DNA of 64,000 bases from the NCBI RefSeq assembly GCF_030012215.1, contig NZ_JASCXX010000002.1:310001-374000 (forward strand), given 5' to 3'. The position numbers and the translations under genes were made by a program. Position 1 is the stretch's first letter; every line of letters starts with the position of its first letter. The DNA is from Anaerobaca lacustris. GTDB lineage: Bacteria > Planctomycetota > Phycisphaerae > Sedimentisphaerales > Anaerobacaceae. This document shows positions 2,100 through 45,065 of this stretch, piece after piece. The notes below the pieces were generated by a model that saw nothing but the letters and a program-made list of their open reading frames with translations, did no database searches and was not told where the DNA came from.

Positions 2100-3978
2100 A
2101 TGCGATTTCCTCGGGCGAATATTCCTGCCACAACCCTTTTTCGTTCACTTCGAGCAGACCCAAGTCGCGTTGAAGCTGCAACTCCGCTATCCGGTAGTTT
2201 ACGACCGCCGCCGTAAGTTGGTTCTGCGCCAAAAGCAAGGCGTCCTGGGCTTCGAGCAGATCGCGGATCTGGGCCCGACCGGCCTCCAGGAACAACGTGG
2301 CGCTGCGGACCCGCTTCTCGGCGACCACCACCTGCTGGGCGTTGATCTTGATGCTCTCCCTCGATTCGAGCAACGTCCGCAACTGACCGCGAATGGACAG
2401 CTTGATCTGATCTTCGAGTTGCTGAACGCTGCGGGTGGCCCGCTCCAGGTCGATCAGGCTGTTGCGAAAGGCGTTGCGTTCGGCGGTTCGCTCCACCGGC
2501 AGGTCCAATGACAGCAGGGCCGCATATCGCCCGCCCTCAAAGCGGAGACTGCCGTCGTCGTCGGTGTCGGCAAACCGGGCCTCCCCGCCCAGGGTCAGGC
2601 CCGCGCGAAGGGCGTCGGCCCGGACGACCACCCTTCTCTGCGCGTCGTAGACATCACCGTTGGCCACCTGCAAATCGCGCCGATTCTCCAGGGCAAGTTG
2701 GATCGCACGCGACGCGTCGATCTCATACGGCCCCGCATCTTCGTACGTTGCCGGCTGCAACACCACCTCCGCGTCGGCCGGAGGGGCCTCCTCGGACCCT
2801 GCATCGGAGGTCTCCCGCATCTCTTTGACGATCTCGTCGGACTGCGTCCGAAGCTGGACCAGATCGTTGGGGTCCAGCTCGATCAGGGCGTCCGGAGGCA
2901 GGCCGAGCTGACTCTTGAACGAATCCAAACGATTCTTGAGCTGTTCCTGGGTCCTGATCCAACTGTTCCGGGCGCCCAACTCACGCTGCAAGGCCTGGTC
3001 CACTTCCACCTGCGTGATCCGCCCGGCATCTGCACGCCGGCGAGTCCACCGCGCCGATGTGATCGCACTGCGGTAGTTGTCGCGGGCGTTGGTCACCGAG
3101 TCCATGTCTTGAAGAACGCCGAAATAGTCCTGTGCAATGCGAACCGCAAACGTCCGCTTGTATCGCTCGAATTCCCAGATCGCATAGATGACGTTCCGCT
3201 CGGCCTGGGTCAGCGGTTCGCTCACAATGTGTCGGCCGGCGCCCCGGAGCAGAGGGATCGAGACGGAGGTGTCGGAACTGAGCCCCAGCGAAGACGAACC
3301 GCCCTGGGTCAGGACGTTCAGCAGATCGACGGCCACAGCGGAACTGATGCTCAGCCCATTCATGAAGTTCCGTGTCAGCCCGAGCGTGCCGCCGCTGTCC
3401 AGCGTGGTGACCGTCTCGTCTCCGGTCGTGTCGGTGGACAGCCGGCTGTCGGCCTGGGCCCGGAAGATATTGCGGAAGTCGTTCCGCGTCAGGTCGAGGC
3501 TCAGAGCGGCCCGGAAGACGTCCTCTTTGAACGACTGATACTCCCTGTTGTTGCCGGCACCGACCTGGAGGGCGTCGATCAGCGAGAGTTTGACGGGTTT
3601 GTTTGGCACGACGGCCATGTCGGGTCCATCTGACACACCCTGCGGCCGATCATCCAGGTCCGGCCAGTGTGGGATCGGATCGAGTCTGTCGGTCCCAAGC
3701 GAGGCCGGGCTCGAATAGGGCAGATCTTGGCCCTCCACGAGCTTCCGTCGTAGGATGTCGCTCGGACGCTCGATGCTGAACGGCTCCGTTCGCCCGATCG
3801 CTTCGGTTTGCTTCTCTGCCACGATTTTCGAACCCACCTCGTCGGCCTTGCGCCGGTGTTGCTCGGGCGACCTGCAGCCGACAATCGCGCCGGCGGCGCC
3901 GAACAAGATGGCGATCGGCAGGACGCGGAGCAGTCTCTTGCGGCAGAGATTACATTGTCCAGGGTGACGGTGATCCAT
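2089..3978 (-). CDS. TolC-like outer membrane efflux lipoprotein
   Basis: Outer-membrane factor of the tripartite exporter. I chose the ATG at 3978 (629 residues) because it puts a lipoprotein-type signal at the N-terminus: a basic stretch, a hydrophobic core and Cys35 in AGAIVGC. An upstream ATG at 4131 would add 51 polar residues before the signal, and neither start has a convincing ribosome-binding site. The body has the two repeated helical hairpins of OEP proteins (for example about 410-440 and the C-terminal LEAGRAQIRDLLEAQDALL segment). A long acidic, Pro-rich linker separates the halves. It is first in the minus-strand operon with the fusion protein and ATPase. Confidence 0.88.
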   Translation of the reverse strand: MDHRHPGQCNLCRKRLLRVLPIAILFGAAGAIVGCRSPEQHRRKADEVGSKIVAEKQTEAIGRTEPFSIERPSDILRRKLVEGQDLPYSSPASLGTDRLDPIPHWPDLDDRPQGVSDGPDMAVVPNKPVKLSLIDALQVGAGNNREYQSFKEDVFRAALSLDLTRNDFRNIFRAQADSRLSTDTTGDETVTTLDSGGTLGLTRNFMNGLSISSAVAVDLLNVLTQGGSSSLGLSSDTSVSIPLLRGAGRHIVSEPLTQAERNVIYAIWEFERYKRTFAVRIAQDYFGVLQDMDSVTNARDNYRSAITSARWTRRRADAGRITQVEVDQALQRELGARNSWIRTQEQLKNRLDSFKSQLGLPPDALIELDPNDLVQLRTQSDEIVKEMRETSDAGSEEAPPADAEVVLQPATYEDAGPYEIDASRAIQLALENRRDLQVANGDVYDAQRRVVVRADALRAGLTLGGEARFADTDDDGSLRFEGGRYAALLSLDLPVERTAERNAFRNSLIDLERATRSVQQLEDQIKLSIRGQLRTLLESRESIKINAQQVVVAEKRVRSATLFLEAGRAQIRDLLEAQDALLLAQNQLTAAVVNYRIAELQLQRDLGLLEVNEKGLWQEYSPEEIAYDR

Positions 3979-4411
3979 AAATGCGCCTAAAACCTGTAGT
4001 TTCTCTTGTTCTTCGTCGTCAGTCAATACCAAAGCTGCCCTGGGACCATAATCGCCCCTGTCTAACCGCCTTTTTGGCGTATCACCGAGGTCTGCTTTCG
4101 AATCCCGAGTAAAGTACAGACGCGACAACATGGTCCGTCATTGCATGGAAACCGGTGTTCGGTGCCATTTGGCGGGCGCGTTCAATCACAGAAACCCTTG
4201 TCTGCGTAAGGTTTAGTGGGCCACGGGCGCGATGCGGTTACAGGTCGGCTGCCCTGTGCACCCGGGCGGGATGTTCAGGGGATCGGGATTGCGTTCGGCC
4301 GGAAACAAGGGTATTGTGTCAGGCCGTTATGGATGACAAGGCCCGAAGTGCCGTCCGGACAGGCACGGAGGTCCAAGGTCCTCACCTGGCACTGGCAGTG
4401 GAGAAAACGAT
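3979..4411. other. Divergent intergenic region
   Basis: This 433-bp gap lies between the efflux operon (minus) and the acyltransferase gene (plus), so promoters for both directions should be here. I see no consensus -35/-10 pair, no terminator and no convincing small gene. The only clear signal is a GGAG ribosome-binding site just before 4412. Confidence 0.5.
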
Positions 4412-5533
4412 ATGGATTTCCCGCCGGAAAGGCCCCTCGCCGCGACCGAGGGACGACTCGTCTCCCTCGATGCCCTCAGGGGCTTCGACATGTTCTGGAT
4501 CATCGGTGGCGGCTGGATCGTCAGCGGTCTGGCCAGGGGTCTGCACAACGAGTGGTTCAACCAGCATGTGGTCCCGCACACCAACCACGTGCCTTGGGAG
4601 GGCTTCGTCGCCTGGGACTTGATCATGCCGCTGTTTCTGTTCGTGGTTGGTGCGGCCATGCCGTTTTCCTTCGCCAAGCGGCTCGAACAGGGGCACCCCA
4701 AGGGCCGGCTCTACGTGCATATCCTCTTTCGTGTAGTCGTGCTGTGGGTCCTCGGCATGATCGCCCAGGGCCGCCTGCTCCAATACGACCTGTCGAAGCT
4801 GCGTCTCTACAGCAACACGCTCCAGGCCATCGCCGCCGGCTACCTGATCGCCTCGATCCTCCTGTTGAACCTTCGGATCTGGTGGCAGGCGGCGGTCACG
4901 GCCGCCCTGCTGCTGTTGTACTGGGCCCTGCTGATGCTGGTCCCCGTGCCCGGATTCGGGCCCGGCCAACTGACGCCGGAGGGGAACCTGGCGATCTACA
5001 TCGACAAGCTGATCCTGGGTCCCTATCAGGACGGTACATCCTATACCTGGATCCTCAGCAGCATGACGTTCGGCTGCACCGTCATGATGGGCGCCCTGGC
5101 GGGCCAGTTGCTTCAGTCCGATCTCGGCAAGATCCGAAAGGTGTTGTTCCTGCTGGCCTCGGGCATCGCCTGCATCTGGATCGGCTGGGCGTGGGGTCTG
5201 GTCTTCCCGATCATCAAGCACCTCTGGACCAGCTCGATGGTGCTGTTTGCGGGCGGGTGGAGCCTGGTGCTGCTCGGGGTCTTCTACCTCGTCTTCGACG
5301 TGCTCCGGCTGCGCCTGCTGGCGTTTCCATTCGTGGTGATCGGGATGAACGCCATCGCCGTCTACATGATTACGCGGGTCTACGACTTTCGGCAGATCGG
5401 CGACATCGTCGTCTCGGGCCTGTCGCGGTGGACGGGCGACTGGCACGAGTTCGTCCGCGCCGTGGCCGGCGTGCTCGTGATCTGGCTGATCCTGCTCCAT
5501 ATGTATCGCAAGAGAACGTTCATCAAGATCTGA
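4412..5533 (+). CDS. HGSNAT-like (DUF5009) membrane acyltransferase
   Basis: Predicted polytopic inner-membrane protein related to heparan-alpha-glucosaminide N-acetyltransferase. In human HGSNAT the family transfers acetyl from cytosolic acetyl-CoA to a terminal amino sugar across the membrane; the bacterial substrate is unknown. The hallmark N-terminus [19 protein letters not shown] is present at about residues 15-34, followed by about nine to ten hydrophobic segments. The length of 373 residues fits bacterial members. GGAG precedes the ATG at a good distance. It is 13 bp upstream of tdh, so probably cotranscribed, although the functional link is not obvious. A second, more distant member lies at 56638-57960 inside a glycan-degradation operon. 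Confidence 0.85.
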
Positions 5534-5546
5534 TGGAGAGCCGCTG

Positions 5547-6575
5547 ATGAAGGCGCTCGTCAAGAGCAAGGCCGAGCCGGGGCTGTGGCTGGAAGATGTC
5601 CCCACACCCCAGATCGGCATCAACGACATTCTGATCGAGGTGATCAAGACCTCGATTTGCGGCACCGACGTGCACATCTACAACTGGGACGCCTGGGCGC
5701 AGAAGACCATTCGCGTCCCGATGGCCATCGGACACGAATTCGTCGGGCGGATCGTGGAGATCGGCAGCAACGTGCATGACTTCGCCGTTGGCGACTTGGT
5801 CAGCGCCGAGGGGCACGTCGTCTGCGGGCGCTGCCGCAACTGCCTGGCGGGCCGCCGCCATCTGTGCACCTCTCCGAAAGGCATCGGGGTCAATCGCGAC
5901 GGCGCGTTCGCCGAGTACATCGCCGTGCCCGTGACCAACGTCTGGTACTGCGACACCTCCATTTCGACGGACATCCTGAGCTGCTTCGACCCGCTGGGCA
6001 ACGCGGCGCATACGGCTCTGAGTTTCAACCTCGTCGGCGAGGACGTGCTCATCACGGGAGCCGGGCCGATCGGCTGCATGGCCGCCGCCATCGCCAGGCA
6101 AGTCGGCGCCCGGCACGTCGTGGTCACGGATGTCAATCCGTACCGGCTCGAACTGGCGAAGAGAATGGGCGCAACGTTGGCCCTGGACGTGCGAACCGGA
6201 CGCTTGGCAGACGCACAGAAACAGCTCGGGATGAAGGAGGGGTTCGACGTCGGCATGGAGATGTCGGGCAATCCCGAGGCCCTTCGTGAGATGATCGCCA
6301 ACATGGCCCACGGCGGCAAGATCGCCCTGCTGGGCATCCTGCCCCGCACCGAGATCGAGTGGGACTTCGTCGTATTCAACGGACTGACGATCAAGGGCAT
6401 CTACGGACGCGAGATGTACGAGACGTGGTACAAGGTCACGATGCTGATCCAGGGCGGCCTGGACCTGGGCCCGCTGATCACGCATCGCTTTCACTACACC
6501 GACTTTCAGAAGGGCTTCGACGCCATGCGTTCGGGCAACTCCGGCAAGGTTGTCCTGAGCTGGCACGACCAGTAG
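5547..6575 (+). CDS. tdh: L-threonine 3-dehydrogenase
   Basis: Oxidises L-threonine to 2-amino-3-ketobutyrate with NAD+. It is a zinc-dependent medium-chain dehydrogenase of 342 residues (E. coli Tdh has 341). Visible features are the catalytic zinc ligand Cys38 in ICGTDVH, His63-Glu64 in GHEFVG, the four-cysteine structural zinc lobe [15 protein letters not shown] (about 93-107), and the Rossmann GAGPIG (about 173). The GGAGAG site lies 5 bp before the ATG. The next gene, kbl, encodes the following enzyme of the pathway. The TAG stop codon is the first three bases of a palindromic repeat. Confidence 0.96.
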
Positions 6576-25910: not shown

Positions 25911-26945
25911 ATGGACAGCCACGCTTCAATCCACATGCAACGGTCCAGCGCGCGGTTCCGTCTTGGGTGCAGGATGCTCGCCCCCTGCCTTGCGATCCTG
26001 CTGGTCGCAGCAGCGAACGCGCCGGCCGAATCGCAGATCATCGAACTCGAACCCGGCGCGTATACGTATCAACACGCCCAACTGATGGCCGACGCGCACA
26101 CCCGGTCGTTCGGCCAGCGCAAACCGCCGGCCCCCAGCCGAATGGCCCTGCGGGAAGACGAACTGACGGACCTGTGCCGACACATCGAATCCCTCCAGCT
26201 CCAGCTCCGACAGACCGAGCAGAGGCTGCACGAGCTGAGCCAGGCGACGCGGCCGGCGCCGGAGGTGAGGCGGGAGCCCGTCTATGGGGGCGATGGCGAA
26301 ATCGCAGAACTGAACCACCGGCGCAACTGGCTTGCCGAGCGAGCGAACCAGCAGGCAATGGAGTTGAGGGAACTCCGTGAGCACCTCGCCAACCGCGAAC
26401 GCCAAATCGCCTCGGAACTGCTCGCCATCCACGAGCAGATGCAGGACGTCGAGAGGGAGCTCGTCGGCCTGGACCGTCGGCGCCAGGAGCACCTGGAACG
26501 CCTCATGGCGGTGCAGAACCAGCTTCGGGAGATCGAGGCCCGGCTTCGCGACCTGATGGCGGAGGTATCGGGCATGCGCAGAGGGGTTGCCGAACGGATG
26601 GAGGAGAACGACCGACAGAGAGAGGCGATCCGCAACGCCATCGAGCGGACGCGGCAGGAGGCCGAACAGGTCAGGAACCAACTGGCAGAGGTCCGTCGAG
26701 CGCCGGCGAGCCTGCCGGAACCGGTGATACGGCCTCGAAGGACCTGGACGCCGCCGCGCCCCATGCCGGCCGCCCCACAGTTGAGTCCCGATCCGGCCCT
26801 CGAAACCGAACTGCGGCTTCTGCGAGAAGAGGTAGCTCAGTTGCGTCAGCAACTCCAGGAGCCTCCGAAACGCGTGGAAATCGTGTTCGTGGAGAACCCC
26901 CACGCCGTCGGCAGTGCGCGAGGCTACTACTGGCCCTGCCGATAA
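25911..26945 (+). CDS. Secreted coiled-coil protein
   Basis: 344 residues with an N-terminal signal or anchor segment (about 21-40, MLAPCLAILLVAAANAPAES). A long alpha-helical coiled coil follows in two parts (about 85-115 and 130-265, rich in Glu, Arg, Gln and Leu heptads), then a Pro-rich hinge and a short final helix (about 300-322). The end, VEIVFVENPHAVG and a Tyr-Trp-Pro-Cys tail, is not recognised. AAAGGAG lies 7 bp before the ATG. It precedes the first BlaI/M56 pair, whose M56 protein also carries a very long coiled coil, so the two could interact in the periplasm; this is inference from shared architecture. Confidence 0.7.
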   Translation: MDSHASIHMQRSSARFRLGCRMLAPCLAILLVAAANAPAESQIIELEPGAYTYQHAQLMADAHTRSFGQRKPPAPSRMALREDELTDLCRHIESLQLQLRQTEQRLHELSQATRPAPEVRREPVYGGDGEIAELNHRRNWLAERANQQAMELRELREHLANRERQIASELLAIHEQMQDVERELVGLDRRRQEHLERLMAVQNQLREIEARLRDLMAEVSGMRRGVAERMEENDRQREAIRNAIERTRQEAEQVRNQLAEVRRAPASLPEPVIRPRRTWTPPRPMPAAPQLSPDPALETELRLLREEVAQLRQQLQEPPKRVEIVFVENPHAVGSARGYYWPCR

Positions 26946-27019: not shown

Positions 27020-27065
27020 GTTGAGTCCCACGCAAAAGATTTTTCCTCAAACGCGGATTTTTTTG

Positions 27066-27094
27066 TTGCAATCTACTATGAATCGTAGTACTCT
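27066..27094 (+). promoter_or_regulatory. Putative promoter with BlaI-type operator, first blaI/M56 pair
   Basis: The dyad TACTA-N7-TAGTA (27074-27090) resembles BlaI/MecI-family operators. It fills the spacer between TTGCAA (27066-27071) and TACTCT (27089-27094), so bound repressor would block polymerase. A matching arrangement precedes the second pair at 30174-30202. Confidence 0.6.
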
Positions 27095-27140
27095 CGGCCA
27101 CAGTAGATTGGCGCAAGCGATGTTGAAGGAGGTCGGCACA

Positions 27141-27533
27141 ATGAGCAGGCAGGCAATCGACGATCTGGGCCAGTTACAGCGCGCGGTCATGGAGATCCTC
27201 TGGTCGCGCGGCGAGGCCACCGTCCATCAAGTTCGCGATCGGCTGGACCGTGAGAAGGAACTGGCCTATACGACGATCCTGACCACGCTGCAGAAACTCG
27301 AACGAGCCGGGTGGCTCGACCACCGCGCCGAGGGCAAGAGCTACGTTTATTTCCCGACCCGCAGCCGCGAGCAGGCCGGCGCCGGATCGGTCAGACGCTT
27401 CCTCAGACAGGTCTTCGAGGGAAACGCCGTCGCGATGTTCCAACACCTGATCCGCGAAGGCGATTTGAGCGACGACGATCTCATCGAACTGCGGAAGATG
27501 ATCGAGGAAAGGCGAAAGGAGAGGCGGAAATGA
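27141..27533 (+). CDS. BlaI/MecI/CopY-family transcriptional repressor (first copy)
   Basis: A 130-residue winged-helix repressor. The DNA-binding domain spans about 8-85 (LQRAVMEILWSRGEATVHQV, YTTILTTLQKLERAGWL) and the C-terminal dimerisation helices are at 90-130. In the BlaI family, an M56 membrane protease partner triggers cleavage of the repressor. The ATG at 27141 follows AAGGAGG; an upstream in-frame start would extend through the operator and is rejected. Its stop overlaps the M56 start (ATGA), so the two are coupled. It probably represses its own promoter through the dyad at 27074-27090. Confidence 0.93.
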   Translation: MSRQAIDDLGQLQRAVMEILWSRGEATVHQVRDRLDREKELAYTTILTTLQKLERAGWLDHRAEGKSYVYFPTRSREQAGAGSVRRFLRQVFEGNAVAMFQHLIREGDLSDDDLIELRKMIEERRKERRK

Positions 27534-30043
27534 TCGGTCACTTCATCTCCGAGACTTCGCTCGGGGCGATCCTGTTGCTCCAGAGCGCCGGGTTCATTGC
27601 GGCAGGTCTGGCAGCGAGCTACCTGCTGCGGCGCTGTCCGGCCCGGGCGCATCGATGTTTGTTGGCCGCGTCGGTCGCGTCCGTGCTCGCACCGGCATCC
27701 TATCTGCTGGTCCGGCATCTCGAACTGGGCGTCCTGCCTTACCAACGGCCGACGATACCCGAGCTTGAGACCTCTGCGCCGGTGCTCGCGGATGCCTGGG
27801 TCCCGTCCGACATGGGTCTTGAGTTCGTCGCCCTGGACGCGACCGCACCCGCGGCAATGCCTGCTGCCGTTGCGGACCGTCGGACAACCTCAGTGCCCTG
27901 GACCACAGTGGCGCTGACATGCTGGGCCGCCTGTTCCACGGTGTTGCTGGTCCGCCTGCTGCTCCAGTTCACGCTGGGCCTGCGGCTGTTGCGCACGAGC
28001 GAGCCCGAGGAGGACGGCCGCGTGCGTGACGCGCTCAACACCGCCAGGGCGCAACTCGGCGTTCGCCTGCCCGTCACCATCGCACGCCACGCCAAGGTGC
28101 GCAGTCCCGTCATCTGGTGCTGGGGCCGACCGCCCACACTGCTGGTCCACAAGGCGGGCCCCCCGTTGCAGAATCGCACCGACTGGGTCGGCGTCTTCTG
28201 CCACGAGTTGGCCCATCTCATGCGACGAGATCACCACAGCGGGCTCTTCGCCGAGCTTCTCACCGCCGCCATCCCCTGGCACCCGCTCACCTGGTGGACG
28301 CAAGCCCGCTTGGCCCGACTCAGCGAACACGCCTGCGACGACTGGGTCCTCGCCGCCGGGCAATCCCCCGCCGATTACGCTGAATCACTGCTGCATCTTT
28401 CACCGCAGAGACGCATGACGTTTCTGCCCACCATTGTAGGTAAGGAGAGAACCATGAAAGCGAGAATCTACCGAATCGTGAAAGACCCCCATAGCGACCC
28501 GAGAATCGGCCGGCGCTGGACGCTGACCCTGACCAGCCTTCTCATTTTGGCCATGACCGCCGTCGCCCTGGCGCAGCGCGAGCCCGCCCCGCCCGCACGG
28601 TCCGATTCCATGGTCCAAGGCGAAAGAGACGAACGGCGCGAGCCCGCCTTCACTGGCCGACGCAATGTCCTGGAGCGCCTGCTCGACCAGCTCATCGCTC
28701 AGGCCGAGGAAGCCGAACGCGCTTTGCAGCAGCGAGGCGACGAGCCGAACAAAGAGACCGAAGTCCTGCGCGCCGAGCTGCGCACCCTGCACGAGCAGAT
28801 CGCCGCCATCGAGCGACAGCTCCAGACGTTGAACCGCCGAGGCCGCCTCACCGAGATCGACGATCCCGACCGCGAGGAAGCCCGCGAGATCCGTGACCTG
28901 TTACGCGGCACACAGAGGGAAATCGACCAGATCGAGACGACGCCGAACACACGCCGGGATCGAGAGCTTGTCGAGCATATGCGGGCTCTCCGCAGCCGTC
29001 TGCGAGAGTTGCAGGCGCAGGTGGCGGAACACGAACGCCGCCTCGAACGGCTCAGCGACCCGGATAGCGAGCGAGGTTTGGACCTTCGTCGTGCCATAGA
29101 GAATCGCCACCGTGAGATGGCAGCAGTCGAAGAGCAGATCCAAGACCAAGAGACAGAGATCGCCACACGACAGATGGTTCTACGGCTTATCGCGAAACAG
29201 CGACGCGATGAAATCGAGAGCCGCATCGCCACAAACGAACGTGTCCTGCGACAGCAGGAAGAGCGCGGCAGCGGCGGCAGTGACGGGTCGAACGAGCTTC
29301 GCCAGCGCCAGGAGCGGATCGAGGCCATTGGCCACGATCGTGAACCCGACGACCGCGTACGTGATCTCCGGAATCGCCTGCTGGAACTCGACAGGGAAGT
29401 TGCCGAGACGAGGCGGTCATGGCAGCAGTCCGGTGACCCGGATAGCGAAGAAAGCCGTAACCACCGCGCGGCCCTGGAACAGCTCCAGCGAGAGAGGGCT
29501 GATGTCCGAGAGGAACTCTATCGCCTCGATCCCGACCTGGAGGCCTGGGAGCAAGAGCGTGCGCTTCGCGTGAATGAAGAGCTCGCCAGCGCAGTCGCCC
29601 GACGCATCGCACTCACGGAACCCGAACTTCTTGAACTCGAGCAGCACGGCCGTGGCGATACCGCCGAAGCGAACCAGCTTCGCCAGAACTTGGCTCGCCT
29701 GCATACGCAAGCGAGGGCTCTCGAAGCACGGAGCGCAGCACGGAGGCGCGACCTCAGTCCTCTGTGCAGCGAGCGAGACCCAGATGAACGGCGTACCGAA
29801 CGACGCGCTACGTCTTCAGACACATTCAGCCGTTACGGAGACCCCTATACCCGCGCCACGGCGCGTGCTCGCATCGCCAGCCCCCAGGCCTCTCCCGACG
29901 TCCAGCGCCAGGTCGAGGAATTACGCGGGCAGGTCACCGGCCTCAACGAACAGATCCAGCAGATGCGCGAGATGCTCCAGCAACTGCTCGAACGCCGCAA
30001 CAGACAGAATGTCGAGACCCAAGAGATGAAGGTCGAGCGATGA
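27530..30043 (+). CDS. BlaR1-like M56 membrane metalloprotease with long coiled-coil C-terminus
   Basis: 837 residues. The N-terminal M56 domain has several membrane helices (about 10-30, 38-55, 120-145) and the zinc motif HELAHLMRRDH (His225, Glu226, His229) with the later EHACDDWVL segment. A final membrane helix (about 328-348) is followed by some 480 residues of extracytoplasmic sequence that is nearly all charged coiled coil (repeated ERLxxLxxQ-type heptads to about 830). There is no penicillin-binding sensor domain as in BlaR1/MecR1, so the signal is not expected to be a beta-lactam. In the family, sensing activates the zinc protease, which inactivates the coupled BlaI. The start overlaps the blaI stop. 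Confidence 0.85.
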   Translation: MIGHFISETSLGAILLLQSAGFIAAGLAASYLLRRCPARAHRCLLAASVASVLAPASYLLVRHLELGVLPYQRPTIPELETSAPVLADAWVPSDMGLEFVALDATAPAAMPAAVADRRTTSVPWTTVALTCWAACSTVLLVRLLLQFTLGLRLLRTSEPEEDGRVRDALNTARAQLGVRLPVTIARHAKVRSPVIWCWGRPPTLLVHKAGPPLQNRTDWVGVFCHELAHLMRRDHHSGLFAELLTAAIPWHPLTWWTQARLARLSEHACDDWVLAAGQSPADYAESLLHLSPQRRMTFLPTIVGKERTMKARIYRIVKDPHSDPRIGRRWTLTLTSLLILAMTAVALAQREPAPPARSDSMVQGERDERREPAFTGRRNVLERLLDQLIAQAEEAERALQQRGDEPNKETEVLRAELRTLHEQIAAIERQLQTLNRRGRLTEIDDPDREEAREIRDLLRGTQREIDQIETTPNTRRDRELVEHMRALRSRLRELQAQVAEHERRLERLSDPDSERGLDLRRAIENRHREMAAVEEQIQDQETEIATRQMVLRLIAKQRRDEIESRIATNERVLRQQEERGSGGSDGSNELRQRQERIEAIGHDREPDDRVRDLRNRLLELDREVAETRRSWQQSGDPDSEESRNHRAALEQLQRERADVREELYRLDPDLEAWEQERALRVNEELASAVARRIALTEPELLELEQHGRGDTAEANQLRQNLARLHTQARALEARSAARRRDLSPLCSERDPDERRTERRATSSDTFSRYGDPYTRATARARIASPQASPDVQRQVEELRGQVTGLNEQIQQMREMLQQLLERRNRQNVETQEMKVER

Positions 30044-30173
30044 CGCCCATGTCGCCATGGATGCGAATCAGCCAAGGCCCTTGCGACCGACCCGGCCGCG
30101 AGGGCCTTTCTCGTTGATGCGTCCCTGTCGGTTTGCGCCAGGCAACTTCTTTCTCGATCTACGAATTTTTTCG

Positions 30174-30202
30174 TTGATTTACTACGAATTCGTTCGTATC
30201 CT
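30174..30202 (+). promoter_or_regulatory. Putative promoter with BlaI-type operator, second blaI/M56 pair
   Basis: TTGATT (30174-30179), 17-bp spacer, TATCCT (30197-30202). The spacer contains TACGAA-N4-TTCGTA (30183-30198), preceded by TAC. The TACTAYGAATYCGT core and an upstream T-rich stretch plus GTTG are shared with the first pair's promoter. Confidence 0.62.
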
Positions 30203-30251: not shown

Positions 30252-30635
30252 ATGGCCAGACATAAGAGCCCCGGACCGACGGACCGAGAGATGGCGATCC
30301 TCAGCGTGCTGTGGGAGCGCGGGCCCAGCACGGTTCGCGAGATCCACGAGACGATAAAGACGGACAGCGAAACGGGTTACACCACGACGCTCAAATTGAT
30401 GCAAATCATGGCCGACAAGGGCTTGCTGTCGCGCAAAGACGCCGGACGCCAGCACGTTTACCGCCCGGCCGTGTCCCAGGAGAAGACGCAGAATCAGGTC
30501 GTCGGCGACGTGCTGGAGAAGGTCTTCGCCGGCTCGGCCGAGAAGCTGGTCATGCGAGCCCTCTCGGCGCGGAAGGTATCGCCCGAGGAGCTCAAACGCA
30601 TTCGCGAGATGCTCGATGAAATGGAGGGAACATAG
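30252..30635 (+). CDS. BlaI/MecI/CopY-family transcriptional repressor (second copy)
   Basis: A 127-residue winged-helix repressor, paralogous to but clearly diverged from the one at 27141. Motifs are PTDREMAILSVLWERGPSTVREIHE (recognition region about 10-34), GYTTTLKLMQIMADKGLL and a C-terminal dimerisation region VLEKVFAGSAEKLVMRAL. ATG at 30252 follows GGAGACGCTC and places the HTH at the normal distance from the N-terminus; the earlier ATG at 30222 is less likely. The next gene starts 2 bp after the stop. It probably represses the operon through the 30183-30198 dyad and may cross-talk with the first repressor. Confidence 0.93.
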   Translation: MARHKSPGPTDREMAILSVLWERGPSTVREIHETIKTDSETGYTTTLKLMQIMADKGLLSRKDAGRQHVYRPAVSQEKTQNQVVGDVLEKVFAGSAEKLVMRALSARKVSPEELKRIREMLDEMEGT

Positions 30636-30637
30636 TC

Positions 30638-33600
30638 ATGGCAACACTACAGACCCTGCTGTCGCAGCAGATGATCGAGCGTCTGGGCTGGACGCTGATC
30701 CACTTCGTCTGGCAGGCCACCGCCGTCGCCCTGATGCTGGCCGTCGTGCTGCGGTGCCTTCGCCGGAGCAGTTCCAATACACGATACATCGTCTCGTGCC
30801 TGGCAATGGTGCTGATCGTCGCGCTGACGCTGGTGACGATGTCGCTTGTCGAGGTATCGAGGCCCGTCGCGGAGGCGGGCCCGACCCTCGGCACCCTGCC
30901 CATGAGCGTTACGCCAGTCGAGGTGATCGAGTTGGCCCAGTTGCGAATCGAGTCGTTCGATGCGCCGGTCCCGGCGATGCCAGAGCGGGCGATTCGCGTG
31001 CCCTGGACGCAGCGGGCCGCAAATGCTCTGGAGCCTGCCTTGCCGTGGCTGGTCTCCGGCTGGCTGCTGGGCGTCTTCGGGCTCTCCGCCTGGCACCTGG
31101 GCGGCTGGGCCCAGTTGCAGCGGATGAAACGGCGCATGGTCCGCCAGGTCGCCGAGCCGCTGCACGCATCGCTGGCCGACCTGTCGAATCGCCTGGGCGT
31201 CCGCCACGCTGTCGGACTGCTCGAATCGGCACTCGTCGAGGTGCCCACCGTCGTCGGCTGGCTCAAGCCCGTCATTCTGCTGCCCGCCAGCGCGCTCTCC
31301 GGCCTCACCACCGAACAGCTTGAGGCAATCCTCGCACACGAACTGGCCCACGTCCGCCGCTGCGACTACCTCGTCAACCTCGCACAGACTGTCGTCGAGA
31401 TCTTAGGATTCTACCATCCCGCGGTCTGGTGGATCTCGCACCGCATTCGCGATGAGCGGGAGAACTGCTGCGACGACGTCGCCGTCGGTGTCTGTGGCGA
31501 TTCCCGCCGCTACGCCCGCGCGCTGACCTGCCTGGAAGAGCTGCGCCACCATAGCACTGAACTGGCGGTGGCGGCCAGCGGCGGCAGCCTCGTAGCGAGG
31601 ATCGCTCGGCTGCTCGGCCGCCCGCCCATCGACAACCGCCGCTTCGCCTGGCTGCCCGGCCTGATCGCCCTGCTCGTCGTCGCCGCCATCCTCATCCCCA
31701 CCGCCCTCGTCCTGGCCGCACCCGAAACAACCGCACCGACAGACACCTCCACCCAAGAAACGCCCTCGGATGCAACAACCCCCAAACTGACGACCCAAAC
31801 GCTCGCCGTCGATCGCACATCAGACCGGCCGACGGTCCTCGTCAGCTTCCTGCTCTTCACCAACCCCATGCCGAACAAGATCGTCGACATCGACACGAGA
31901 CGCCGGATCGCCGAGATCCTGGCCCCCGAAGTCCCGCCGGCTCGAGAAGGGCTCGCCGCGATGCAGAATGCCACCGTCGCCCAAATCCTGCAAACCTGGG
32001 TGGCCGGCCGACTCCTGACGCCATACACCACCGAATTCCTCGTCGACGTGCTCCAGTCCAGAGGCTATCTCGAACGCGAAGCCACCCCCGAGATCCTCGT
32101 CAACGACAACGTACCGGGCCACATGAACCTGATCACCGAGGAGCTGTTCCTTCCCGCTGAAGACCCCACCTCGTCCCCCAAGCTGGTCAAAATGGGCACC
32201 TTCGTACAGGTAACGCCCCACGTCCCGCCCGCACCCAGCGACCGCATCACCCTGGAGATCGCAGCCGAATGGAAGAGCCGAATCAAGCAATCCGACCCGA
32301 ACGAGAACCCCACGATCCGCTCCACCGAAATCGCCTCCACCGTCACCGTCTTAAAGAACCACTATTTCACCCTGCTCGCCCAGCCCGACGGCACATCCGA
32401 CAGCGAAGATGTCGCAAACAACTTCCACCTCCTCATCTTCCGCGCCGACCTCTTCGAACCCAGCCTCACCGACGCCACCACCCCGACTCCCCCCGCCCGC
32501 GCCAGCAAGACTCTGTCGCGCCAGATCATCCTGGACGTCCAGACCGTCAGCGTCGCCAAGGACAGCCTCGCCGATGGCATCGTCGAATGGGGCCGCCCGC
32601 AAACCGGTGGATGGCCTATGGGAATCGAGATGGGCTACACCGGGAGCACAAATATTAACAGTAGGCGAGCAGGTGGATGGCCTATGGGAATCGAGATGGG
32701 CTACACCCCCGACCAAACCGTCACCGACGCCCTCCGCAAACATCTGGATGAACTCTACGCCCAAGGCCTCGCACGCCGCCTCGCCCACCAACGCCTGACA
32801 ACGCAGGATGGATACAAAGCCCGCTTCAAAGCCGTCAAGGAGGAATGGTTCTCTCTGACCCCGCCCCAGACGCAGAACGCTGGCGCGCCGCAAGCCGAAC
32901 ACACCAGCATCGCCTCCGGCACGATCATCACCGCAACCCCGACCATCAGCGACGCCAACAATATCACTCTCCACCTGAACGTCGAATTCAGTGAAAGTCT
33001 CCCCAAAGCCGAAGGCTCAGACCTGCCGATCGTCACCCGCCGCACCGTCCGAAACGTCGTCACCGTCCGCGATGGCGGCACCGTCCTCCTCGCCGGCCTC
33101 TCCTCGCCCTATCCCGACCCCACCACCGAAATCGCCATCCTCGTCACCGCCCGCCTCGCCCCCGAAACCGAACCCGTCACCCAGCAAGACCGCCCCCTTC
33201 CTCAGACCGTTCCGCCGTCCGAGCCCGCCGCCATTCATACACCCGTTCCGTCGCCTCCCCCGGTCGCGACTGTTGAGCCGAGTGCCGACGAAACAGATCG
33301 CCAGGTCCTGCTCAGCTTCACCATCGCGGAGGTCCCGTCCCGTCAGATCCTCGACCGCGAAACGGCCATCCTCGTCAGAACCCTTCTTGCGACCGAAGCC
33401 CGGGAGAACTACACCGCGCCGCGCCTGGTGCAACTCCGCCAGCCGCTACGGCGCGTATTCAGAGAACACCTGGCCGACCCAAACCTGTCGGGAGATACCA
33501 TCAAGGCCGTCCTCGACGTGCTGATATCGAACGGCTATGGCCAGATACTGAGCACGCCGAAACTCCTGACGACCAACCGAAGATGGGCGCGGATCATCCT

Positions 33601-35545
33601 CGGAAATGCGCCCTCTCGCAACGCCTCTGCAACCTCAGATCGCGACCGATCCTTTGGAATGAACCTCGATGTCACGCCGACCATTCGCCACGCCCAGGAC
33701 ATCATCTCGCTCGGGCTCGATATCACTTTCCGGGACGCGTTCCTGGCGCTCGACGACAAGACCCGAACGCAGCGGGACGAATCGCTTCCGAAGCGTCACC
33801 GTATAGAGGAGTCCCGTCTCAGTCTTTTCAGGATCGATACCCCGAACGAACGCTACGCGTTCGTGTCCCTGGCGAGCGCCGCAGAGCGCTTGGATGCCCA
33901 GGGCGATTTCCACCTGCCTGTCTTGCTGGTCAAGCCAACCCTCATTGAGCCCGCCGCTGCCCCTGCGCTTGCGCCGTCCGCCTCCGAGCAGGCAACCGCC
34001 GACGCAGCACGCGAATTCGAGTTCGTCCGGACCGATCCGGTGGTCCAAATGCTCATGCAAAGAATCACGGAGGTAGAAATCGAATTACTGGAAGCGCAGC
34101 AGACGTTCCTGCCGGAGCATCCCGAAATCGTCCAGAAGAAACAACTGCTGGAAGCGCTGAACACTCATCTGGAGAAGAGACACAGATGGTTGGAGCAAGA
34201 ATTCCAGGCCGGCAGAACCTCCGTTGCCGCGCCGGACGATCCGGCGCAGCAGCGTGCCAACGCGGAGACGGTATTGGCCATTCTGCGTCAAGATCTGGCA
34301 AGGGTCGACGAGGAAATCGACAAGGCCGACTCAGCGTGGTACCCGGACGAAGCGGAGCGATCACGTGAATTAAAGAACCTGAAACAACATAAGGAGGTCA
34401 TCGAAGGCCAAGCTCAGGAGATCGCGCGGATAATAGAGGAGCAATTCGGCCCTCCTGCTGAGCCTGAGCCTTACCAGATCTCCGAGACAGATCGCTCCGC
34501 CGAGCGAATGAGGCATCTGGGCTTGGCCCTTCGTCTCTACGCGGACAGTCACGATGGGCGGTATCCCGACGATCTGCTGCCACTGGACCCGTATCTGAGC
34601 CTGGAGGATTCACGTTGGATCGAGACGAGCGTAGTCTACTCGGGAAAGGGCAGGACCGCAAACGATGAGTCCGACACGCCGATTGCGTATGATAGAAGCG
34701 TGCTGGAGAAGACTGGTAGCACCCTGAGTGTGTTCGCAGACGGTCAGATTCGCTCCATCCCAGTCGAAGCTTTGACCCCGCCGCATCGGAAGACGAACGC
34801 GGTGGAGGTGGAGGCGAGGTTTGTGCTGGTGGATCGGGAGTGTCTGGAGGCCATGCAACGCGGCCTGCCGATCAAAGGCGTTGCGGCGCCCGCGGACGTC
34901 AACGCGCTGCACGAGATCGGCGCCGACATCGTCGAGGGCCGAACGCCCGTCTTGGAGCCCGACGAGGTCGAACTGCTGCTCAAGGCGGTCCGCCAGTATA
35001 CGGCGAGCAAGATGCTGGCCACACCGAGGGTTATCGTGGCGGACGCCGAATCCGCCAGCATCCGTATTGGGGGACCGATGGACTACATCAGCGGGTATCG
35101 CGAGCCCGATGGCGCCTCACATCAACCGATCCCACAAAACGCCTCGAAAGAGACCGGCGTCCGATTCGACGTAACACCATACCTCATCGAAGACCCCAAC
35201 AGCATCCGCCTCCAGTTCGACATGGAGATCACCTCGCTGCTCGCCACGCAGAAGGCCCTCTACCAGGGCAAGTACGAGTACGACATCCCCACGTTCACGA
35301 CCGTCACGGTTGACACCGAGATCGTCATACCCAACGGACAGACCGCCCTGATCCACGCAGGATCAATACGCTCGCTTGGCGGCATCGGCCGCGATGAAGG
35401 CGACCCGCCCGCGCCGATGCTGATGCTCATCAAGCCCACCATAGCAGCGGTCCCGCCTCCCGCCCCCGCGGCCCCGATGCCCGACAAGCGCCGGCCCGGC
35501 GATCCCGGCATGGGCACCCTGCCGCCCGGCACGAATCTATGGTAG
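30638..35545 (+). CDS. Giant BlaR1-like M56 protease fused to four secretin-like modules
   Basis: 1635 residues. The N-terminal M56 domain has helices at about 17-35 and 45-70, HELAHVRRCDY (His234, Glu235, His238), RDERENCCDD (about 270-280), and a last membrane helix at about 340-362. The periplasmic part has four modules of about 215 residues ending in a hydrophobic strand: A about 395-607, B 626-841, C 888-1104, D 1386-1607. A and C are clearly related. B and D end like secretin domains (D has TGVRFDVTPYLIEDPNSIRL, then IVIPNGQTALIHAG and MLMLIKPTI). A coiled coil (about 1135-1268) and an LGLALRLYADSHDGRYPDDL segment lie between C and D. No beta-lactam sensor is seen. GGAGGG precedes the ATG. 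The stop codon is supplied by a palindrome. Confidence 0.85.
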   Translation: MATLQTLLSQQMIERLGWTLIHFVWQATAVALMLAVVLRCLRRSSSNTRYIVSCLAMVLIVALTLVTMSLVEVSRPVAEAGPTLGTLPMSVTPVEVIELAQLRIESFDAPVPAMPERAIRVPWTQRAANALEPALPWLVSGWLLGVFGLSAWHLGGWAQLQRMKRRMVRQVAEPLHASLADLSNRLGVRHAVGLLESALVEVPTVVGWLKPVILLPASALSGLTTEQLEAILAHELAHVRRCDYLVNLAQTVVEILGFYHPAVWWISHRIRDERENCCDDVAVGVCGDSRRYARALTCLEELRHHSTELAVAASGGSLVARIARLLGRPPIDNRRFAWLPGLIALLVVAAILIPTALVLAAPETTAPTDTSTQETPSDATTPKLTTQTLAVDRTSDRPTVLVSFLLFTNPMPNKIVDIDTRRRIAEILAPEVPPAREGLAAMQNATVAQILQTWVAGRLLTPYTTEFLVDVLQSRGYLEREATPEILVNDNVPGHMNLITEELFLPAEDPTSSPKLVKMGTFVQVTPHVPPAPSDRITLEIAAEWKSRIKQSDPNENPTIRSTEIASTVTVLKNHYFTLLAQPDGTSDSEDVANNFHLLIFRADLFEPSLTDATTPTPPARASKTLSRQIILDVQTVSVAKDSLADGIVEWGRPQTGGWPMGIEMGYTGSTNINSRRAGGWPMGIEMGYTPDQTVTDALRKHLDELYAQGLARRLAHQRLTTQDGYKARFKAVKEEWFSLTPPQTQNAGAPQAEHTSIASGTIITATPTISDANNITLHLNVEFSESLPKAEGSDLPIVTRRTVRNVVTVRDGGTVLLAGLSSPYPDPTTEIAILVTARLAPETEPVTQQDRPLPQTVPPSEPAAIHTPVPSPPPVATVEPSADETDRQVLLSFTIAEVPSRQILDRETAILVRTLLATEARENYTAPRLVQLRQPLRRVFREHLADPNLSGDTIKAVLDVLISNGYGQILSTPKLLTTNRRWARIILGNAPSRNASATSDRDRSFGMNLDVTPTIRHAQDIISLGLDITFRDAFLALDDKTRTQRDESLPKRHRIEESRLSLFRIDTPNERYAFVSLASAAERLDAQGDFHLPVLLVKPTLIEPAAAPALAPSASEQATADAAREFEFVRTDPVVQMLMQRITEVEIELLEAQQTFLPEHPEIVQKKQLLEALNTHLEKRHRWLEQEFQAGRTSVAAPDDPAQQRANAETVLAILRQDLARVDEEIDKADSAWYPDEAERSRELKNLKQHKEVIEGQAQEIARIIEEQFGPPAEPEPYQISETDRSAERMRHLGLALRLYADSHDGRYPDDLLPLDPYLSLEDSRWIETSVVYSGKGRTANDESDTPIAYDRSVLEKTGSTLSVFADGQIRSIPVEALTPPHRKTNAVEVEARFVLVDRECLEAMQRGLPIKGVAAPADVNALHEIGADIVEGRTPVLEPDEVELLLKAVRQYTASKMLATPRVIVADAESASIRIGGPMDYISGYREPDGASHQPIPQNASKETGVRFDVTPYLIEDPNSIRLQFDMEITSLLATQKALYQGKYEYDIPTFTTVTVDTEIVIPNGQTALIHAGSIRSLGGIGRDEGDPPAPMLMLIKPTIAAVPPPAPAAPMPDKRRPGDPGMGTLPPGTNLW
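32606..32707 (+). repeat. Exact 36-bp direct repeat with 66-bp period inside the giant M56 gene
   Basis: Identical 36-bp copies at 32606-32641 and 32672-32707 encode GGWPMGIEMGYT twice, separated by 30 bp that look AT-richer than the surroundings. The reading frame is kept. It lies near the start of secretin-like module B. Confidence 0.92.
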
Positions 35546-44219: not shown

Positions 44220-45065
44220 CTACAGGCTCCCCATATGTGTCTTACCGGGGTAGCGGGCATCCAGCCACTCCAGGTCGGGATTGGGCGGGTTGAAGATCTG
44301 TCCCTTGCCGAACCCCAAGGCAGCCGCCTCCGTGCGGCTCCGACAGTAGATGATCGTCCGCTTATCCTCCCACTTCTTCCGCTCGGCGTGGCCATCCATG
44401 AAGCTGAACGTGCAGGCGTCGCTGTGGAAGATGCCCAGCGGGTCCCACAGGCTCCCATCGTACGGGATGTACGACCAGCCGTCGTGATTGTAGTTGCCAG
44501 CCGAGCCGTCGTAGATCTCCTCGACGAACAGCATCTTGTTGGCCTGGTCTTTGAAGGTGAACAGCTTCTTGGGATCGGACGGGGCCGTCCCGCGCAGATA
44601 ATCGGGCAAAGAGTAGCTGCGGTAGATCTGATGGGCCGGGGTGTTGCCCAGGCTGGTGCCGAGGTTCTTGCGGTTGTCGCCCGGACAGTTGAAGACGGCT
44701 GTCTCACGTAGGAAAGGGCACAAGGCGCCTTCCCGCAGACCGTTGAGCCGCTGATGAAGCGTTACGTCGCCGCTGGCCATGCCCACGATGGCGCCGCCGG
44801 CCGAATAGTCCAGAGGGGGCATGACCCAGGGGGGGACACCGTCGGTCGGGGTATGCCTTGCGAAACCGCCGCAGATGGAGCCGTCGTTGTCATCGGCGTA
44901 CATGATGTAGGCCTGGGCGAGTGACCGCTGGTTCGCCAGGCAACTGATGCCTCGCGCCTGTTCGCGGGCGATCTTGAGGGCCGGCATGAGAATGGCCATG
45001 AGCACGGCAATCACGGCGATAACGACCAGCAGCTCGATCAGGGTGAATCCGTCACGCTTGCACAT
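44220..45065 (-). CDS. Prepilin-type protein with H-X9-DG-like C-terminus
   Basis: 281-residue pseudopilin-like protein. The N-terminus GFTLIELLVVIAVIAVLMAI (about 6-25) is a classic type IV prepilin cleavage/methylation motif, with cleavage expected after Gly6 and Glu at mature position 5. The C-terminal FHSDACTFSFMDGHAE is the H-X9-DG-type signature of planctomycete prepilin-like proteins. These are numerous in the phylum and mostly of unknown function. The nearby PilT/GspE-like cluster at 17-21 kb might belong to the same machinery. The ATG at 45065 is the only sensible start. Confidence 0.93.
   Translation of the reverse strand: MCKRDGFTLIELLVVIAVIAVLMAILMPALKIAREQARGISCLANQRSLAQAYIMYADDNDGSICGGFARHTPTDGVPPWVMPPLDYSAGGAIVGMASGDVTLHQRLNGLREGALCPFLRETAVFNCPGDNRKNLGTSLGNTPAHQIYRSYSLPDYLRGTAPSDPKKLFTFKDQANKMLFVEEIYDGSAGNYNHDGWSYIPYDGSLWDPLGIFHSDACTFSFMDGHAERKKWEDKRTIIYCRSRTEAAALGFGKGQIFNPPNPDLEWLDARYPGKTHMGSL

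What the first reader, a model, noticed from the sequence alone, without database searches (positions are those of the whole stretch)
30638..35545. BlaR1-type protease fused to four secretin-like modules
A 1635-aa protein joins an intact M56 zinc protease to a very large periplasmic region of about four 215-aa modules with secretin-like endings, a coiled coil, and a segment resembling prepilin-like proteins, instead of a beta-lactam sensor. It implies a BlaI-coupled sensor of an envelope or secretion structure. Similar fusions may exist in planctomycetes but I know of no described function.
Basis: partly seen in the sequence, partly recalled or inferred. Interest (0 to 1): 0.62.

Follow-up and report, generated by a model that had tools for sequence, protein, structure and literature searches.

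The report
Sensor built from disarmed secretion-pore pieces
A planctomycete gene encodes a membrane protease that, together with its repressor, carries outside the inner membrane four copies of secretion-pore subunits whose membrane-inserting part has been cut out; this suggests, but does not prove, that the cell uses dud copies of its own secretion machinery as a sensor.

Summary
Window 30638-35545 encodes a 1635-aa protein: M56 protease with intact HELAH...E, four secretin-like modules (Pfam Secretin, total E 2.8e-44; AlphaFold models of modules 2 and 4 match only secretins above Z 6), a coiled coil and a pseudopilin-like domain. New here: (1) its modules fall into three secretin paralogue families of the same genomes, and most M56-fused modules lack the outer-membrane lip segment (34 of 39 scored), which all 59 free secretins scored keep. 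(2) The blaI promoter carries two TACGAA-N4-TTCGTN dyads; this exact tandem site occurs once per genome in 16 of 397 genomes, each time ahead of blaI-M56, so the detectable regulon is the operon itself. (3) In two species of one related genus the same operator drives two pseudopilin genes, then blaI and M56. (4) Orthologues at this locus vary widely in their periplasmic part; several show no secretin module. Best reading: a BlaI/M56 receptor using disarmed secretin and pseudopilin pieces to read the state of secretin/pilus-type machinery. Anatomy and self-regulation are well supported by sequence; the sensed ligand is inferred. New variant of a known kind (BlaR1-BlaI signalling).

The parts
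30160..30175 (+). Operator O1, TACGAATTTTTTCGTT (imperfect dyad, overlaps the putative -35 TTGATT at 30174-30179)
   Evidence: read from sequence; 1 mismatch to TACGAANNNNTTCGTA; conserved across loci
30183..30198 (+). Operator O2, TACGAATTCGTTCGTA, between putative -35 (30174-30179) and putative -10 TATCCT (30197-30202)
   Evidence: The promoter reading is mine; the consensus promoter scan did not list it
30252..30635 (+). blaI: winged-helix penicillinase-repressor family (ORF listed from 30222; ATG at 30252 fits the 127-aa homologues)
   Evidence: Pfam Penicillinase_R E 1.7e-29; homologue lengths; start choice is inference
30638..35545 (+). M56 protease fused to secretin-like modules, 1635 aa
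30638..31720 (+). M56 membrane protease part, residues 1-361; HELAH 234-238, E275, last hydrophobic helix about 342-360
31823..32473 (+). secretin-like module 1 (residues 396-612), class B, no lip
32504..33163 (+). secretin-like module 2 (residues 623-842), class A, 44% identical over residues 627-824 to the own-genome secretin on contig C4, no lip
33293..33955 (+). secretin-like module 3 (residues 886-1106), class B, no lip
33980..34432 (+). coiled-coil stretch, residues about 1115-1265
   Evidence: judged from sequence, no predictor run; weak matches to chain-length determinants only
34496..34753 (+). pseudopilin-like (H-X9-DG type) domain without prepilin leader, residues 1287-1372
34793..35452 (+). 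secretin-like module 4 (residues 1386-1605), class C, lip reduced to a possible remnant
27141..27533 (+). blaI of the tandem upstream pair; its upstream region shows a different dyad (ACTATGAATCGTAGT)
27530..30043 (+). second M56 protease with a coiled-coil-like periplasmic part; recurrent tandem neighbour
   Evidence: start at ATG 27530 is inference

Best explanation
A two-gene, self-regulated receptor. BlaI binds two dyads over its own promoter and represses blaI plus the M56-secretin gene. The M56 part sits in the inner membrane with its protease facing the cytoplasm; when the 1275-aa periplasmic part changes state it cleaves BlaI, as BlaR1 does, and the operon is switched on. The periplasmic part is assembled from copies of the cell's own secretin C-domains, taken from three secretin families, whose outer-membrane insertion segment has been lost, plus a pseudopilin-like domain. 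I propose that these disarmed copies bind free or mis-assembled secretin or pseudopilin subunits and so report on secretin/pilus-type machinery. Shown by sequence: domains, active site, module ancestry, lip loss, operator, single detected target. Inferred: topology and BlaI cleavage (from BlaR1), operator function, and the ligand.
For: M56 with HExxH in 21 of 21 and E..CD[DE] in 20 of 21 M56+secretin ORFs; blaI upstream in 19 of 19. Secretin fold of modules 2 and 4: secretin rows at Z 8.4-11.8 and 9.4-12.2, next other rows 5.7 and 4.5. The window modules fall in three clades that also hold free secretins of the same genomes (supports 100/100, 95/97, 97/81). Lip segment kept in 59 of 59 free and 5 of 39 fused domains scored, Fisher 2e-21 (ignores relatedness), at least 9 changes on a tree built without the lip columns. 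Exact tandem operator once per genome in 16 of 397 genomes, reversed-pattern control 0 of 397, each time ahead of blaI-M56. Exact O2 only at this operon in three same-genus genomes; further one-mismatch sites 6, 3, 4 against 4, 3, 5 for the control. Two species of one genus with pseudopilin genes directly behind the operator and ahead of blaI-M56. BlaR1 cleaves BlaI directly and its protease faces the cytoplasm (PMC9834060, abstract and passages). Precedent for an inner-membrane system that recognises secretins: Psp (PMC5596341, abstract).
Against: At the same kind of locus, M56 orthologues of other species show HEAT, LRR, TTR-like, Sde182-like or unassigned periplasmic parts and no secretin match (L039 as far as readable, L040/L168, L042/L170, L043, L166, L167, L173, L178; L166 and L167 have a diverged operator). 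Other M56 proteins of this genome carry PD40/WD40-like, Clp_N or DUF4097 modules, so module shuffling is common. The pseudopilin-containing operons come from one genus, and a third species given the same genus code (G043, L173) has the operator right before blaI without them. No site with up to one mismatch lies directly at a secretin gene, so the receptor does not visibly control secretins. Five scored fused modules keep the lip, and a part-domain in L165 (1346-1612), left out by the coverage filter, keeps a lip-like stretch. Psp ignores secretin monomers, so a monomer sensor has no direct precedent. Nothing is measured on binding, topology or cleavage.
Confidence: 0.42

Rival explanations
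1. Generic modular receptor: secretin C-domains were recruited only as sturdy periplasmic beta-domains or spacers, with no functional link to secretins; the ligand is something else and differs between species.
For: Operator-linked M56 carries unrelated modules in other species; module number changes within the genus (3, 4 and 5 modules in L161, window and L160); M56 proteins of the own genome carry many module types.
Against: Recruitment mainly from three of the secretin families present (37 of 40 fused rows), the pseudopilin-like domain placed right before the last module in six loci, and pseudopilin genes in the operon of two species are unexplained.
Confidence: 0.37
2. Structural or effector protein: the periplasmic part is the product that matters (a scaffold, buffer or chaperone for secretin/pseudopilin subunits, or an inner-to-outer membrane strut), and M56/BlaI only sets its own level.
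For: The only detected BlaI target in most species is this operon; secretin cores with lip persist as the last secretin module in L033, L035, L038 and L163, with STN or Secretin_N matches in L033 and a weak STN match in L163.
Against: The window protein lacks the lip in all four modules and has no N-domain detected by Pfam; a receptor that induces itself is also common in sensor systems (general knowledge).
Confidence: 0.16
3. Decayed or artefactual fusion without function.
For: Divergent modules (12-21% identity of module 2 to most of the 75 other rows) and a 43-nt repeat, 66 nt apart, inside module 2.
Against: Open frames in three same-genus genomes, 66-82% identity at both ends, conserved operator and active site.
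Confidence: 0.03

Closest known systems
BlaR1-BlaI / MecR1-MecI (M56 antirepressor and BlaI repressor)
   Same: M56 protease domain with HExxH...E, coupled BlaI-family repressor, operator at its own promoter
   Different: No penicillin-binding sensor domain; periplasmic part of 1275 aa made of secretin-like and pseudopilin-like modules; only its own operon is a detected target; NCBIfam blaR1_generic scores 83 bits against a cut-off of 400
Secretins (GspD, PilQ, MshL; PF00263)
   Same: C-domain sequence and predicted fold
   Different: Attached to an inner-membrane protease, lacks the AHL/lip segment and detectable N-domains, four divergent copies in one chain
Phage shock protein (Psp) system
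   Same: Would work alike if the best reading holds: an inner-membrane system tuned to secretins (PMC5596341, abstract only)
   Different: No sequence relation was sought; protease/repressor logic instead of the Psp proteins; Psp sees secretin multimers and ignores monomers
H-X9-DG/DUF1559-type pseudopilins
   Same: YAxDHDxxxP helix end and FADGxxxF-like C-terminal motif
   Different: No prepilin leader or N-terminal hydrophobic helix in the fused domain

Membership tests
BlaR1/M56 peptidase (PF05569) | M56 domain above the curated cut-off | tested here: met
   96.8 bits against 31
BlaR1/M56 peptidase (PF05569) | zinc site HExxH...E | tested here: met
   HELAH 234, E275; HExxH in 21 of 21, E..CD[DE] in 20 of 21 M56+secretin ORFs
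BlaR1/M56 peptidase (PF05569) | paired BlaI-family repressor | tested here: met
BlaR1/M56 peptidase (PF05569) | cleaves BlaI on a signal | not testable with these tools
   needs an experiment
BlaR1 beta-lactam receptor in the narrow sense | penicillin-binding sensor domain | tested here: not met
   no such Pfam family listed at E up to 1; blaR1_generic 83.2 bits against cut-off 400
Secretin (PF00263) | secretin core domain | tested here: met
   fold of modules 2 and 4
Secretin (PF00263) | AHL/lip segment for outer-membrane insertion | tested here: not met
   14-23 residues without the motif instead of 40 with it. That this stretch is the AHL is my reading: PMC6532946 passages describe the AHL but give no letters there
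Secretin (PF00263) | N-domains (STN, Secretin_N) | tested here: not met
   none listed for P0001 at E up to 1; present in L033 and the second ORF of L036
Secretin (PF00263) | multimeric ring in the outer membrane | not testable with these tools
   needs biochemistry or microscopy
Type II/IV pseudopilin | prepilin leader and N-terminal methylation motif | tested here: not met
   absent from the fused domain by sequence; no NCBIfam hit for the window piece
Type II/IV pseudopilin | globular-domain similarity | tested here: inconclusive
   hhalign 73% over 28 columns, E 3e-5; H-X9-DG model above cut-off in the L174 piece, under it in L115; predicted long helix plus small sheet, but no fold search of this part alone
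Phage shock protein system | PspA/PspB/PspC proteins | not tested
   no search for Psp proteins was made

The most novel reading that the evidence does not exclude
Cells of this order keep a molecular-mimicry receptor: soluble, lip-less copies of their own secretins (three families) and a pseudopilin-like domain hang from an M56 protease and compete for the subunits of secretin/pilus machines, so that BlaI is destroyed when subunits pile up or fail to assemble. It would be a dedicated secretin-assembly sensor evolved independently of Psp, with an exchangeable bait region.
Probability: 0.25. Interest if true: 0.87.

Novelty: new variant of a known kind. Interest (0 to 1): 0.66.

Why it matters
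Sensors made from stripped copies of the thing they may sense would be a striking design, and the repeated loss of just the membrane-insertion segment is a clear evolutionary signal. It gives a testable route to how planctomycetes, whose envelope stress circuits are little studied (general knowledge), might monitor their many secretins. It also defines an operator (two TACGAA-N4-TTCGTN dyads) by which this BlaI/M56 locus can be found, whatever sensor it carries.

Tried and rejected
Rejected: beta-lactam sensing (no transpeptidase family listed). Rejected: a working secretin pore in the window protein (no lip, no N-domains detected). Rejected: loss of protease function. Not supported: a wide BlaI regulon by this operator. 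Beyond O1 and O2 there were 6, 3 and 4 one-mismatch sites in the three same-genus genomes (G000, G038, G092), against 4, 3 and 5 for the reversed pattern; three of the six in G000 are one repeated 16-mer. One of the six, C4:216860, lies inside a reading frame of a pilin-like gene cluster (L125), about 5.7 kb from its secretin, and I did not take it as an operator; the surroundings of the others were not read. Sites with two or more mismatches were not sought genome-wide.

Led nowhere: consensus promoter scan (0 promoters listed); NCBIfam on the window's pseudopilin-like piece alone (0 families); VIA-align of the second model barely tests its residues 1-99, as secretins fill the list; the 195-aa membrane protein of L169 and the 697-aa neighbour of the C4 secretin have no Pfam family at E up to 0.001. 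Paper searches for M56 or BlaR1 with secretins or Planctomycetes showed no description of such fusions in their listings; the library lacks most subscription journals and preprints.

Caveats on counts: the two second ORFs of split genes (L034, L036) were labelled 'fused' by me without joining them; of 41 fused rows one cut domain (L034 865-997) and one odd one (L214, 49 residues, no motif) were left out, leaving 39. Of 62 rows first labelled free, three lie beside M56 fusions (L093 twice, L174) and were left out, leaving 59; two further free secretins listed were not fetched, so 59 of 61 in six genomes. Part-domains under 120 model positions were not scored; among them L165 1346-1612 keeps a lip-like stretch. 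The lip call for L038 was made by eye. For AlphaFold model 1, 76 of the 101 available domain rows were aligned. Several loci are the same record under two names (L034/L260, L040/L168, L042/L170, judged by equal contig length).

Full report
What is there. The ORF at 30638-35545 (+) encodes 1635 aa without interruption. Pfam finds Peptidase_M56 (E 1.7e-27) and four Secretin stretches (total E 2.8e-44); NCBIfam gives partial matches to GspD, PilQ and MshL and to blaR1_generic, all under their curated cut-offs. HELAH lies at 234 and E275 in ENCCDD. Hydropathy shows strong helices at 20-38, 51-69 and 342-360, so residues after 360 should be periplasmic; this and the cytoplasmic protease are inferred from BlaR1 (PMC9834060, abstract and passages). 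blaI ends at 30635. A second blaI/M56 pair with a coiled-coil-like periplasmic part lies just upstream (27141-30043).

Secretin modules. A profile iterated from an own-genome secretin finds the four modules at 4e-29 to 7e-49. AlphaFold models of module 2 (76 aligned rows, pLDDT 82.6, pTM 0.74) and of the pseudopilin-like domain plus module 4 (34 rows, pLDDT 91.4, pTM 0.72) were compared with the PDB. Among the 50 rows shown each time, every row above Z 6 is a secretin or secretin complex by its title (RcpA and BfpB named as secretins from recall): Z 8.4-11.8, best 3.9 A over 141 residues, and Z 9.4-12.2, best 2.9 A over 130; the next rows drop to 5.7 and 4.5. Foldseek finds the same secretins (39 and 23 matches at E up to 0.001), with modest TM-scores (0.24-0.40 by query for module 2).

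The missing lip. In the free secretins scored, exactly 40 residues separate the 'GGL' strand from the last strand, and they hold a VPxLGDIPxLGxLF-type motif. [quoted passage not shown] the passages give no letters, so the identification is mine. Window modules have 18, 14, 17-18 and 23 residues there and no motif. Overall, 59 of 59 free secretins (of 61 in six genomes) keep it, and 5 of 39 scored fused modules do: the last secretin modules of L033, L035, L038 and L163, and L093. A part-domain of L165, not scored, keeps a lip-like stretch. The Fisher value (2e-21) ignores relatedness; parsimony on a tree made without the lip columns needs at least 9 changes.

Where the modules come from. In a 101-domain tree window module 2 falls with contig C4-type secretins (class A, 11 rows, 100/100), modules 1 and 3 with the C6/C24-type (class B, 27 rows, 95/97), and module 4 with the type found on C2 at 119916 (class C, 21 rows, 97/81). 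Of the 40 fused rows, 37 lie in these three clades; L041, L171 and L093 do not. The other secretin groups of the tree hold free secretins only. Long branches are flagged by the program, so fine branching is unsure. Within the genus the M56 part is 75-82% identical while module number varies: 5, 4 and 3 in L160, window and L161.

Regulation. Upstream of blaI lie TACGAATTTTTTCGTTGA and, 5 bases on, TACGAATTCGTTCGTA (window 30160-30198). The second dyad sits between a putative -35 and -10, which would let BlaI block the polymerase; the promoter reading is mine, and the consensus scan did not list it. Of the loci examined, counted once per record, 26 of 28 carry the pair with an exact O2 (O1 with up to 3 mismatches); L166 and L167 have diverged sites. 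Searching 397 genomes drawn from the class, the exact tandem pattern occurs in 16, once each and all within the own order, with 0 for the reversed pattern. All 16 lie ahead of blaI-M56: right before blaI in most, with three genes between in G001. Of these 16, the M56 protein has secretin-like modules in 11 (window, L034, L160, L161, L163, L164, L165, L169, L171, L172, L174); none was found in L168, L173 and L178; L175 and L176 are cut by contig ends, though another contig of the L176 genome matches module 4 at 77%. In three same-genus genomes exact O2 is found only here.

Link to pseudopilins. In G001 (L169) the operator at 3821-3857 is followed by two prepilin-type genes (3896-4795, 4796-5659), a 195-aa protein with a hydrophobic helix, blaI (6273) and M56-secretin; NCBIfam scores the prepilin N-terminal domain above cut-off in both. 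G054/GWF2_42_9 (L170, L042) has the same order with one mismatch in O1, but its M56 protein has no secretin match. Both belong to one genus code, and G043 of that code lacks the insert, so this is one lineage. The window's pseudopilin-like domain (1287-1372) recurs in M56 ORFs: 12 of the set, the window's included. It stands right before a secretin module in window, L035, L036, L038, L163 (all class C) and L037 (cut), and more loosely in L160. Its kinship to pseudopilins rests on a 28-column profile match and on the H-X9-DG model in the L174 piece.

Verdict. That this is a BlaI-coupled, self-regulated M56 receptor whose periplasmic part is built from disarmed secretin pieces is well supported by sequence. 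That it senses secretin or pilus-type machinery is the reading I rate most likely (0.42), but a generic-module rival is close (0.37), chiefly because orthologues at the same kind of locus carry other modules. No paper listed in my searches describes it.

Noticed in passing
27021-30043: A second blaI/M56 pair whose periplasmic part looks all coiled coil stands directly before the finding; a tandem of two (three in L034) blaI/M56 pairs recurs in L034, L036, L038, L039, L160, L163, L165 and L175; where looked at, the first pair has another operator dyad.
   Followed up: partly
32599-32707: A 43-nt repeat (93% identical, start-to-start 66 nt) duplicates GGWPMGIEMGYT inside module 2; the L160 orthologue has one copy. 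Recent duplication or assembly error.
   Followed up: partly
25911-26945: A 344-aa coiled-coil-like protein without a Pfam family over its cut-off lies upstream of the tandem blaI/M56 pairs.
   Followed up: no
44220-45065 (-): A prepilin-type protein with an H-X9-DG-like end elsewhere in the window, with no operator of the kind found here beside it.
   Followed up: partly
L115:5192-9397 (own genome contig C25): Another M56 protein carries four pseudopilin-like domains and no Pfam secretin match.
   Followed up: partly
L037:6001-13113 and L174:6980-11419: M56 proteins of this family also carry a SecDF_P1_head domain, another piece of a protein-export machine.
   Followed up: no
L093:6001-13033: A Pedosphaera (Verrucomicrobiota) M56 protein ends in a secretin domain with lip and is followed by two more secretin-like ORFs.
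   Followed up: no
G000:C17:111182, C21:12611, C54:435: The same 16-mer TACGAAGAACTACGTA recurs on three contigs (and once in G092), probably part of a repeated element.
   Followed up: no
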